Positions 46,136-48,514 of a DNA stretch of 64,000 bases are shown here, piece after piece. The notes below the pieces were generated by a model that was given only the letters and a program-made list of their open reading frames with translations, was not told the origin of the DNA and did no database searches. The DNA is taken from contig JAPOXD010000041.1 of the NCBI GenBank assembly GCA_026707285.1, forward strand, positions 1 to 64,000, given 5' to 3'. How positions within the stretch are numbered: the first letter of the stretch is position 1; each line of letters opens with the position of its first letter. This DNA comes from Chloroflexota bacterium. GTDB taxonomy: Bacteria; Chloroflexota; UBA11872. A program made the translations under genes and the position numbers.

Positions 46136-47284
46136 CTACGGTTCAGCGAACAAGGCCATGATCTCAACGTGAGGGACGAGTTGGCCATCGCGCTCTATAA
46201 GCAACTCGTGCTCTAGCAGCGTGCGGAGGTCGCGTTGCGTGGTCCTAACTCCCACGCGGCGATAGACGCTGCCAATGATGCTTGGTGAATCCAAGTTCTC
46301 GTGGGGCGCCCGCGCGAGTTGCGCGCCCGTCAGGCGCCTGATGAGATCCAACATCCGCGCCCGCCGCCGATCCCCGAGGCCGGGCACCTCTTCGAGCGTC
46401 TGGCGGGCGTACTCGTGGAAAGCGATGACTCGAATCATCGCCATCAACTCACGTCGCACTTGCGCAAGCTCGCTTGCCAACCCCTCGATCGCAAAGAGCA
46501 CGAAATCTGTAAGGTCGCCGTCCGACCTGAAACGCGCGGCTGTTAGCGCGTCCACGTAGGCGTCTCGGTTCTGGTAGTAGAAATTCGCCAGCGAGTAGAA
46601 CCCAAAGGCGTTGATCCCGGCGCGATAGAGCATGAAGCTTTCGACGCCACGCGATGCCCGCCCGTTGCCATCGCCGAACGGGTGAATGCTCACCACGTAG
46701 AAGTGCGCGATGGCCGCACGAACAATCGGGTCCCAGGCGGCAGCCGTGCCCTCGTCGAACCAGCGCACGAAGTCCGACATAAGCCGGCAGACCTCGTCGC
46801 CGGTAGCTGGCGGACGGTAGTCGCCGGCGGATACGGCGTGGTCTCGGAATTGCCCTGGCTCATTGCCTTGGTAGGGCACACCCTCCGTAGTAAGCCGGTG
46901 GAATTCCCGGATGAGCGGCTCGTCGAGCCGCCGCTCGGGATTTGCCCGCAGCTCATGCTGCACGAATTCAAGCACGGCCTGCGCGTTGCGGGCTTCACGC
47001 TCGTCGCGCGACCGGTCGTCCGGCAAGACTTTGACATCGGCCGGTGCGTCCAGCACTTCGAGCGCCTCGGTTTCCGAAATCCGCGTCCCCTCGATTGCCG
47101 CCGTACCACGTACGGCGCGTGCGATGTTGAGCGCGTTCAGGCGTCGCCGCACACCAACGGTCACCGGAATGCCGCGAATCGTCTCGGCGATCGCGCGCGA
47201 GCGCTCAATCGCCCGCACGAGCCGCGGCTCATCGACGCGAATGCGGACATTGAAGTGAACGTCCCAGCTCGGCATGCTGCTCAT
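46136..47284 (-). CDS. Fic-domain protein (predicted AMP transferase)
   Basis: 382 residues. The Fic signature HPFGDGNGRASR is at residues 201-212, so the catalytic His is His201 and the usual Mg-binding Asp is present. An inhibitory-helix motif of the (S/T)xxxE(G/N) type, TAAIEG, is at 61-66 ahead of the core, the class II layout, so it is self-inhibited. A C-terminal winged-helix-like part (RRVGVRTTQRDLRTLLEHELLIERDG) follows. Fic proteins transfer AMP to target proteins. It is followed upstream by a run of TGTCGC half-sites that may be its operator. Confidence 0.88.
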   Translation of the reverse strand: MSSMPSWDVHFNVRIRVDEPRLVRAIERSRAIAETIRGIPVTVGVRRRLNALNIARAVRGTAAIEGTRISETEALEVLDAPADVKVLPDDRSRDEREARNAQAVLEFVQHELRANPERRLDEPLIREFHRLTTEGVPYQGNEPGQFRDHAVSAGDYRPPATGDEVCRLMSDFVRWFDEGTAAAWDPIVRAAIAHFYVVSIHPFGDGNGRASRGVESFMLYRAGINAFGFYSLANFYYQNRDAYVDALTAARFRSDGDLTDFVLFAIEGLASELAQVRRELMAMIRVIAFHEYARQTLEEVPGLGDRRRARMLDLIRRLTGAQLARAPHENLDSPSIIGSVYRRVGVRTTQRDLRTLLEHELLIERDGQLVPHVEIMALFAEP

Positions 47285-47287
47285 TAG

Positions 47288-47382
47288 GCGACAACATCCG
47301 CGTCATTGTCGCGGTAACTGTCGCGTCTCTCAAACCTGTTAAATGCTAGTTTTTCACGCGACAGTGTCGCCGTCAATGTCGC
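47288..47382. promoter_or_regulatory. Array of TGTCGC/GCGACA half-sites upstream of fic
   Basis: Six exact hexamers lie in 95 bases: GCGACA at 47288 and 47358, and TGTCGC at 47307, 47319, 47365 and 47377. Two TGTCGC pairs are 12 bases apart, and 47358-47370 is an inverted GCGACA-G-TGTCGC. The intervening CTGTTAAATGCTAGTTTTT stretch is AT-rich. The region lies directly upstream of fic. It looks like a multi-site operator with spacing near one helix turn; the regulator is unknown. It is a reading of the sequence, not a known motif. Confidence 0.5.
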
Positions 47383-47407: not shown

Positions 47408-48514
47408 CTAAGCCGCCCCACCCGCCACGAAGGCGCGAATCTGGTCCCCCGTCAGGCCGTCGATGCCGAGGTCGGCCAGGGTGCGACGGTTGGTGTCCAG
47501 CGGCTCTTGCAGCACGGTAAGGCCAAGTGCAACGACGGCGTCGATAATCGGAGTCGGCACGCCCAGCGCGGCGCCCAGGCCGGACCACGCGCGCAGGCCG
47601 TAAGGCACGTCCTCCGACAGCCAGCGCGTATTGAGTTCGCCCGGCGCCTTCAGCGCGGTGAGCATCGCGCTGCCGTTGATCGTGGCCCACAGGTCGGGCG
47701 GCTCGGCGCGGGGACCGAACCCGGCGGCAGCAAACGCTTGGGCGGCATCCGGCAGATCGTGGCCCAGGGCCGCGGCCACTGCGCGGCGCTCCGCGTCCAG
47801 CGCCATGATCGCCCGCACCACGCCCGGCGTGACGCCCTCGTCGTAGAAGTAGAACTCCCCCCGCGAGCGCTCGATGCGCCCGGCGTTGAGCAGCACGCCC
47901 GGCGGATGGACCACCGGGTTCATCGCGCTCAGCCCGCAGGCCAGCACGTCCGGCATGGGGGTGATGCCGGGGAACAGCGGCGCCAGCCGCTCGTGCACCT
48001 GCGCCGTGGCCGTGGACGGAAACACGCCCAGGCCCATCGCCGGCACCACGCCCCAGATCGTGGCGCCGTCCGGCTGGGTCTTGCGGCAGACGTAGGGCGC
48101 GGTGTCGGTTTCGGCGATTGGGATGGCGGGCGCGCCGGACTCACGCAGCAGGCGCGCCACCTCCAGCGCCCCGAGCGTTCCCGGCATGAGCGTGAGCGTG
48201 TGGCTCGGGCGGATGTGCGGAGCCAGCGCCCGCGCCCACGACGCATGGCCATAGGCCGGCACGATCAGCAGCAGGTCGTCCGACGCGGCCGCGGCGGCTC
48301 CGACGTCGTCCGTGACCATGTCAATGCGCGCCGCGCCCGTGTGCGCCACGCCGTGCAACTCGATCACCCGCGCCTCGCGCACCGGATCGAGGGCCTCGGC
48401 GAACTCGGGCAGCTCCCCCAGGGTCACGGAGTGCCCGGCCAGCGTCAGGTTGGCCGCCGTGGCAAAACCCGTGTTCCCGGCGCCCAGCACCACCACCGAT
48501 TCACCCGACGCCAT
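47408..48514 (-). CDS. Opine/octopine-type NAD(P)-dependent dehydrogenase
   Basis: 368 residues. The Rossmann N-domain has VVVLGAGNTGFATAANL. The C-terminal half has the opine dehydrogenase pattern: MNPVVHPPGVLLNAGRIE and an EDVPYGLRAW segment. These enzymes join or split an amino acid and a 2-oxo acid by reductive amination. Substrate unknown. It is upstream of the fic gene on the same strand but separated by the half-site array, so it is probably independent. It is divergent from the 2-hydroxyacid dehydrogenase. Confidence 0.82.
   Translation of the reverse strand: MASGESVVVLGAGNTGFATAANLTLAGHSVTLGELPEFAEALDPVREARVIELHGVAHTGAARIDMVTDDVGAAAAASDDLLLIVPAYGHASWARALAPHIRPSHTLTLMPGTLGALEVARLLRESGAPAIPIAETDTAPYVCRKTQPDGATIWGVVPAMGLGVFPSTATAQVHERLAPLFPGITPMPDVLACGLSAMNPVVHPPGVLLNAGRIERSRGEFYFYDEGVTPGVVRAIMALDAERRAVAAALGHDLPDAAQAFAAAGFGPRAEPPDLWATINGSAMLTALKAPGELNTRWLSEDVPYGLRAWSGLGAALGVPTPIIDAVVALGLTVLQEPLDTNRRTLADLGIDGLTGDQIRAFVAGGAA

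What the first reader, a model, noticed from the sequence alone, without database searches (positions are those of the whole stretch)
47288..47382. Six TGTCGC half-sites upstream of fic
Six exact hexamers in 95 bases is far above chance. Two direct pairs are 12 bases apart and one forms an inverted pair with a single-base gap. They lie right before a self-inhibited Fic protein, so they look like an operator for a dedicated repressor.
Basis: seen in the sequence. Interest (0 to 1): 0.55.

Follow-up and report, generated by a model that had tools for sequence, protein, structure and literature searches.

The report
Fic gene's own repeat-array operator
The repeated six-letter motif in front of this bacterial fic gene is most likely the set of landing sites through which the Fic enzyme, using its own DNA-binding tail, turns down its own gene, and the same 12-base-spaced design recurs before related Fic genes in other bacteria and in viral sequences.

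Summary
In detail: six exact TGTCGC/GCGACA hexamers lie at 47288-47382, in the 123-bp gap before fic. Of 2034 hexamers it alone reaches six copies in any 95 bp of the window; 400 shuffles never exceed four. A seventh half-site with one mismatch (47300-47305) completes two clusters, O1 and O2. All 13 orthologs found in 24 genomes of the order have a same-strand GACA (or TGTC) pair 12 bp apart upstream. Outside the order, 13 of 30 Fic proteins with a similar C-terminal winged helix also have such a pair (shuffles: mean 0.25, max 3), against 1 of 58 other Fic-motif genes. The base before GACA tracks residue 347, at the start of Fic's recognition helix, better than any other of 375 protein columns (22 of 24 loci), with several concordant switches on a tree; loci without arrays fit this less well. 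So 'operator' is right, but the 'dedicated repressor' is most likely Fic itself: a self-regulated AMPylase, as shown by experiment for CccR. Binding and repression were not tested here. Apparently new: the 12-bp GACA array and its covarying residue.

The parts
46136..47284 (-). fic gene, 382 aa, Fic AMPylase-type domain plus C-terminal winged helix-turn-helix
   Evidence: Pfam Fic E 2.1e-15; AlphaFold2 model, mean pLDDT 88.4; VIA-align Z 28.6 to CbFic2 8cil, 341 aligned, rmsd 4.5
47087..47104 (-). TAAIEG (residues 61-66), fitting the [S/T]xxxE[G/N] inhibitory-helix motif (motif recalled)
   Evidence: T61, E65, G66 invariant in 13 orthologs
46649..46684 (-). HPFGDGNGRASR (residues 201-212), Fic active-site motif
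46148..46372 (-). C-terminal winged helix-turn-helix (residues 305-379); recognition helix 346-358 with R347-T-T-Q350-R-D-L
   Evidence: AlphaFold2 secondary structure; the assignment as recognition helix is inferred
47358..47382 (-). operator cluster O1: GCGACA-N6-GCGACA-N1-TGTCGC (three exact half-sites; 13-bp dyad 47358-47370)
47288..47324 (-). operator cluster O2: GCGACA-N6-GCGACA-N1-TGACGC-N6-TGTCGC (four half-sites, one with a mismatch; symmetric)
   Evidence: all four exact in L002
47371..47376 (-). TTGACG, possible -35 inside O1, 17 bp before AAAACT (47348-47353); weak -10, inferred
   Evidence: TTGACG at the equivalent place in 10 of 13 orthologs; not found by the consensus scan
47305..47333 (-). 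alternative promoter-like pair TTGAGA-17-GACAAT, whose second hexamer overlaps an O2 half-site
   Evidence: 9 of 12 matches; mean 0.0 in shuffles
47331..47340 (-). AACAGGTTTG, conserved element between O1 and O2, role unknown
   Evidence: exact in 10 of 11 orthologs of the family

Best explanation
The array is the operator of the fic gene and the Fic protein itself is the repressor. The C-terminal winged helix of Fic places its recognition helix (346-358) on NGACA half-sites; several Fic molecules bind side by side at a 12-bp pitch (and, in this order of Chloroflexota, head to head on 13-bp dyads), cover the promoter-like hexamers, and hold fic expression low. The protein is at once a self-inhibited AMPylase (class II motif) and its own transcriptional brake, a one-gene counterpart of a toxin-antitoxin pair. 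Shown: the array, its conservation with fic, its 12-bp design in relatives, its statistical tie to residue 347. Inferred: physical binding, cooperativity, repression rather than activation, and what releases it.
For: All 13 orthologs found in the 24 genomes of the order have at least one same-strand GACA/TGTC pair 12 bp apart around the start of the reading frame (8 of 8 non-redundant representatives); G010 keeps the array although it lacks the dehydrogenase gene that lies upstream in the window. Outside the order 13 of 30 loci with a similar helix have a 12-bp GACA pair; 1000 shuffles: mean 0.25, max 3; other Fic-motif genes among my loci 1 of 58; GACA is the 4-mer most often repeated at 12 bp without choosing it beforehand (13 loci, next GGAC 8). 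Distances of 9-11 and 13-15 bp occur in 0 or 1 of 38. Of 375 aligned protein columns, residue 347 best predicts purine or pyrimidine before GACA: K with purine 10 of 10, R with pyrimidine 12 of 14, two tied loci (L018, L048) dropped, Fisher p 6.7e-5. On a tree of the Fic core without the wHTH (25 loci, the two ties assigned by hand), both labels need several changes, and L161, L166/L201 and L047 switch both together. Natural experiment: in G003 four flanking proteins are 93-97% identical to the window's but Fic is 52.5% identical, and both its helix (RTFRRDL for RTTQRDL) and its operator (GTGACA and TGGACA for GCGACA) differ. Precedent: CccR, a Fic protein with a C-terminal HTH, binds inverted repeats in its own promoter and represses it (PMC9755527, abstract and passages).
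Against: No binding, footprint or expression data. 17 of 30 loci outside the order have no 12-bp GACA pair, and the two Gordonia phage loci, not in that count, show no array (by eye). L066 has RTLQRDL but no array. The 58 controls are a mixed set of Fic-motif genes, some without a wHTH, so not a matched control. The residue-347 rule fails for L114 and L203; among 14 loci without an in-phase array, R-type L107, L157, L180, L192 and L267 have mostly or only G before GACA and K-type L118 has C, while L163, L097 (K-type) and L204 (R-type) fit. Position 347 was found after looking, and the loci are related. In the order, Q350 goes with C and R350 with T, but this is no clean rule outside. G004 keeps the operator although fic is gone, so an array alone does not prove a live regulator. 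The transcription start is not known.
Confidence: 0.75

Rival explanations
1. The array is an operator for a separate, unlinked repressor; Fic's wHTH binds elsewhere or has another role.
For: No experiment shows Fic binding. Symmetric, promoter-overlapping sites suit any dimeric repressor.
Against: The 12-bp GACA design recurs in Chloroflexota and viral contigs with Fic proteins of this helix type and hardly with other Fic-motif genes; the operator base follows residue 347 of Fic itself; none of the three neighbours searched is a regulator.
Confidence: 0.1
2. Fic binds the array but mainly to control its enzyme (DNA-induced dimerisation and activity, or storage of inactive enzyme), with promoter control secondary or activating.
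For: CbFic2 (best structural match) binds DNA through its HTH, and its activity is reported to be regulated by DNA binding (PMC10628234, passages).
Against: Sites lie at promoter-like hexamers just before fic, as expected for transcription control; CccR represses through such sites.
Confidence: 0.1
3. Replication-type iterons, a recombination site or an RNA element that happens to lie before fic.
For: Direct repeats at regular spacing resemble iterons in form (recalled).
Against: None of the neighbours put to Pfam is a replication or recombination gene; the repeats lie before fic in 13 of 13 orthologs found; the window lies on a 68.9-kb contig of a 3.2-Mb bacterial genome. RNA families were not searched.
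Confidence: 0.03
4. Chance cluster or low-complexity artefact.
For: Half-sites are short, and 57 hexamers exist in the window.
Against: Six in 95 bp against at most four in 400 shuffles; present, in variant form, in relatives down to 43% protein identity.
Confidence: 0.01

Closest known systems
CccR of Yersinia pseudotuberculosis (Fic + C-terminal HTH; PDB 7XUX; PMC9755527)
   Same: N-terminal Fic domain, C-terminal HTH; binds its own promoter and represses its own gene (abstract and passages); VIA-align Z 24.9, 324 aligned, rmsd 9.9 to our model
   Different: CccR's footprint holds two 10-bp inverted repeats with a 26-bp spacer; here hexamers at a 12-bp pitch with a GACA core, and 13-bp dyads. 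CccR is a secreted effector; secretion was not examined here.
CbFic2 (PDB 8cil; PMC10628234)
   Same: Best structural match (Z 28.6, 341 aligned, rmsd 4.5, 20% identity); DNA binding through HTH reported
   Different: Studied with random DNA sequences; the passages read name no operator
SoFic / PADLOC SoFic anti-phage Fic
   Same: PADLOC SoFic model E 1e-47 over residues 15-379; E. coli Sofic is reported as an abortive-infection toxin (PMC12249575, start of abstract and passages)
   Different: Far below NCBIfam's SoFic equivalog cut-off (50.8 against 550 bits); EcSofic has a small downstream antitoxin AS1, while here fic is followed after 3 bp by a convergent dehydrogenase gene
Cooperative binders of direct repeats, e.g. 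BldC (PMC5859096; title and start of abstract seen in the listing)
   Same: Protein multimers on direct repeats
   Different: MerR-related, not Fic; repeat unit and pitch not compared

Membership tests
Fic (Fido) AMPylase-type, PF02661 | Fic domain above Pfam cut-off with HPFx[D/E]GN[G/K]R | tested here: met
   57.8 bits against 24; HPFGDGNGR
Class II (self-inhibited) Fic | [S/T]xxxE[G/N] motif N-terminal to the Fic core (recalled definition) | tested here: met
   TAAIEG; T61/E65/G66 invariant in 13 orthologs; inhibition itself untested
CccR-type autoregulating Fic-HTH protein | C-terminal HTH after the Fic domain | tested here: met
   AlphaFold2 helices 305-324, 333-340, 346-358 and strands 362-365, 368-371
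CccR-type autoregulating Fic-HTH protein | Protein binds and represses its own promoter | not testable with these tools
   Only indirect: arrays and covariation
CccR-type autoregulating Fic-HTH protein | Two 10-bp inverted repeats with a 26-bp spacer | tested here: not met
   Hexamers at 12-bp pitch, dyads with 1-bp centre
SoFic defence protein | NCBIfam NF046030 equivalog cut-off (550 bits) | tested here: not met
   50.8 bits
SoFic defence protein | PADLOC SoFic model match | tested here: met
   E 1e-47
SoFic defence protein | Protection against phage | not testable with these tools
   -
Two-gene type II toxin-antitoxin system | Adjacent antitoxin gene in the same operon | tested here: not met
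   Adjacent genes are an octopine-type dehydrogenase and a convergent Fe-containing alcohol dehydrogenase

The most novel reading that the evidence does not exclude
Fic-wHTH proteins of the SoFic-like kind form a family of one-gene switches that polymerise at 12-bp pitch on GACA arrays over their own promoters, with specificity set largely by one residue at the start of the recognition helix (Lys reads purine-GACA, Arg mostly pyrimidine-GACA), so that alleles can be swapped with their operators as orthogonal cassettes between bacteria and mobile elements, and release from the array (by an invading phage or by competing DNA) both derepresses and arms the AMPylase.
Probability: 0.2. Interest if true: 0.8.

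Novelty: new variant of a known kind. Interest (0 to 1): 0.6.

Why it matters
Some Fic enzymes with DNA-binding tails are toxins, including anti-phage ones, and the only autoregulated case I found in print is CccR. If this reading is right, one DNA signature (NGACA at 12-bp pitch before the gene) marks autoregulated Fic proteins in bacteria and viral sequences, and one protein residue helps predict the operator letter, so self-binding can be tested with short oligonucleotides. In nine literature searches, judged from listings plus passages of three papers, I saw no mention of a 12-bp GACA array; the library holds open-licence papers only.

Tried and rejected
Separate repressor gene next to fic: of fic's neighbours, the three put to Pfam are dehydrogenases. 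Regulon elsewhere: GCGACA-N6-GCGACA occurs 5 times in the own genome, 2 before fic; the backward-read control pattern occurs 3 times, so the other 3 look like background; their gene context was not examined. GCGACANTGTCGC occurs at one place in the own genome, at fic; of the 12 loci from relatives and own genome printed, the 8 away from fic have the dyad and at most one further half-site within 250 bases.

One-residue code at position 350 (Q with C, R with T): holds in the order but not outside, so not claimed generally. My first residue-347 test (25 loci, 371 columns, 24 of 25) assigned two ties by hand and missed L203 because its start was misplaced; the corrected test (24 loci) drops the ties and adds L203, which is discordant, and its figures are the ones used. 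The tree still uses the 25-locus set.

Rows dropped before counts: the near copies L022, L002, L030, L028, L017, L050; L001, L002, L030, L028, L017, L050 and also L066 (another Fic class). One search leaves out one locus with too little upstream sequence, giving 38 of 39. The subfamily list of 46 loci was hand-picked from the C-terminal sequences printed; the 58 controls are the remaining Fic-motif reading frames, of mixed classes.

Promoter: the consensus scan names TTGAGA-17-GACAAT; I favour TTGACG-17-AAAACT on conservation, but it is not settled. O1-O2 centre distance is 58 bp in 7 of 13 sequences and 68 bp in one; in the other five (70, 70, 80, 92, 70) another stretch scores better or equal, so no claim on helical phasing.

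Named phage and plasmid relatives: Gordonia phages Mcklovin and EnalisNailo (2 of 10 matching phage records fetched) have the Fic-wHTH but no 12-bp GACA array; the Vibrio plasmid frame read in L269 has another C-terminus. Of 878 plasmid records matching the window's Fic only 5 were fetched; one, the Psychrobacter plasmid (L081), has the helix type and 12-bp pairs. A plasmid search with L159 at E 1e-30 found nothing. RNA families and two-hybrid-like tests were not run.

Full report
Observation. On the fic strand the 123-bp gap between the octopine-type dehydrogenase gene (47408-48514) and fic (46136-47284) reads O1 = GCGACA-TTGACG-GCGACA-C-TGTCGC and O2 = GCGACA-GTTACC-GCGACA-A-TGACGC-GGATGT-TGTCGC. 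O2 is symmetric: two half-sites 12 bp apart on each side of a one-base centre. TGTCGC is not enriched in the window as a whole (57 against 65 expected) but is the only hexamer of 2034 with six copies in 95 bp, and 400 shuffles never exceed four.

The gene. Fic is a 382-aa protein with a Fic domain (Pfam) and the TAAIEG and HPFGDGNGRASR motifs. The AlphaFold2 model (alignment of 26 sequences, mean pLDDT 88.4) ends in a winged helix-turn-helix: helices 305-324, 333-340 and 346-358, with a two-strand wing; residue 347 is the second residue of the last helix. Among structural matches that span nearly the whole model are CbFic2 (Z 28.6, 341 aligned, rmsd 4.5), Dde_2494 (27.1, 308, 6.5), SoFic (25.8, 313, 6.3) and CccR (7xux, 24.9, 324, 9.9); FICD entries rank among them on the Fic core alone. 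The wHTH part by itself was not searched.

Conservation in the order. A protein search of 24 genomes gave 13 with an ortholog (43-100% identity). Exact TGTCGC/GCGACA counts in the upstream 270 bases are 6, 5, 6, 5, 6, 3, 3, 2, 2, 2, 0, 4 and 0 (L003 and L009-L020). The two zeros, L018 and L020, carry GTGACA/TGTCAC forms instead, and both have R instead of Q at position 350. AACAGGTTTG between O1 and O2 is exact in 10 of the 11 orthologs of the family. In the same genus, G003 has four flanking proteins 93-97% identical to the window's but a Fic only 52.5% identical, with a correspondingly different operator: gene and operator differ as a unit.

Loss. G004 has the same neighbours (94-96% identical) but no fic; an operator relic of the GTGACA/GGACA kind remains. 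G018 has lost most of the Fic domain (residues about 22-288), yet keeps seven exact half-sites and the stretch encoding the wHTH, in another frame than the start. In four other genomes with the dehydrogenase gene but no ortholog (G007, G012, G014, G016) the stretch fetched beside it shows no cluster.

Beyond the order. A Chloroflexota genome of another class (L047, helix KTLSRDL) has five GGACA half-sites in a row at exactly 12 bp. Viral contigs added 27 relatives with a similar helix. In the 38 loci, a same-strand GACA pair at 12 bp occurs in 21; at 9, 10, 11, 13, 14 and 15 bp in 1, 0, 1, 1, 1 and 0; at 24 bp in 10 and at 36 bp in 7. Outside the order it is 13 of 30 (1000 shuffles: mean 0.25, max 3); 58 other Fic-motif genes give 1, though they are a mixed, unmatched set. 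The 13-bp dyad GACAnTGTC is an addition of this order: 7 of 8 against 0 of 30. So the general unit is the 12-bp direct repeat, and 17 of 30 relatives lack even that.

Who binds. For 24 loci with at least two in-phase sites and no tie, I asked which of 375 protein columns best predicts a purine or pyrimidine before GACA. Column 347, the first position of the motif R/K-T-x-x-R-D, comes first (z 13.8; next 8.6) and is right in 22 of 24: Lys with purine 10 of 10, Arg with pyrimidine 12 of 14. The exceptions are L114 and L203 (RLFRRDM). Of 14 loci without an in-phase array, R-type L107, L157, L180, L192 and L267 have mostly or only G, and K-type L118 has C, against the rule; L163, L097 and L204 fit; the rest are split, empty or of other helix types. 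On a tree of the Fic core alone (25 loci) the helix label needs 5 changes and the base label 4, with L161, L166 against L201, and L047 switching both together. This is what direct reading of the operator by Fic's own helix predicts. It was found after looking, and relatedness is only partly controlled.

Mechanism. Sites overlap promoter-like hexamers (TTGACG-17-AAAACT by conservation, or TTGAGA-17-GACAAT by consensus); in the distant L048, TTGACA-17-TAAAAT is interleaved with GGGACA sites (sequence). Autorepression by promoter cover is therefore the simplest reading, as shown for CccR by footprint, gel shift and lacZ fusion (PMC9755527, abstract and passages). A coupling between DNA binding and enzyme activity, as reported for CbFic2 (PMC10628234, passages), is possible. 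The PADLOC SoFic match (E 1e-47) and the report that Sofic is toxic when expression leaks (PMC12249575, passages) suggest why tight self-control would pay; a defence role here is untested.

Verdict. Autoregulation by a Fic-HTH protein is known (CccR); the 12-bp GACA array and the residue-347 relation were not seen in the papers I could search.

Noticed in passing
L241 (G003:C12:132500-138600): Same locus as the window with four flanking proteins 93-97% identical, but fic and its operator strongly diverged (52.5% protein identity), as if exchanged as a cassette.
   Followed up: partly
L262 (G004:C20:13400-17100): fic absent between the two dehydrogenase genes, but an operator array and AACAGGTTTG remain as a relic.
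   Followed up: partly
L246 (G018:C1:749500-755000): Most of the Fic domain is missing; seven exact half-sites and the wHTH-coding stretch remain, in another frame than the start.
   Followed up: partly
L073 and L076, just before the fic reading frame: Other Fic genes in Chloroflexota have a different repeat (GGTAATA/TATTACC, direct and inverted) before the gene, as if other helix types had their own operators.
   Followed up: no
L085 and L087, upstream of fic: Another Fic class shares GCGAATAATCGTTTATTC, an imperfect inverted repeat, before the gene.
   Followed up: no
window 47331-47340: AACAGGTTTG is exact in 10 of 11 orthologs of the family, even in the diverged G003 allele; its role is unknown.
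   Followed up: no
L267 (MN428055.1, Gordonia phage Mcklovin gene 33): A named phage carries a Fic-wHTH relative, annotated 'toxin in toxin/antitoxin system', close to tyrosine integrase genes; no 12-bp GACA array.
   Followed up: partly
G000 contigs C14, C15, C25 (L004-L008): The own genome has five further Fic relatives at E <= 0.001; no exact TGTCGC hexamer in the 420 bases printed on one side of each match (for minus-strand genes that side is downstream).
   Followed up: partly
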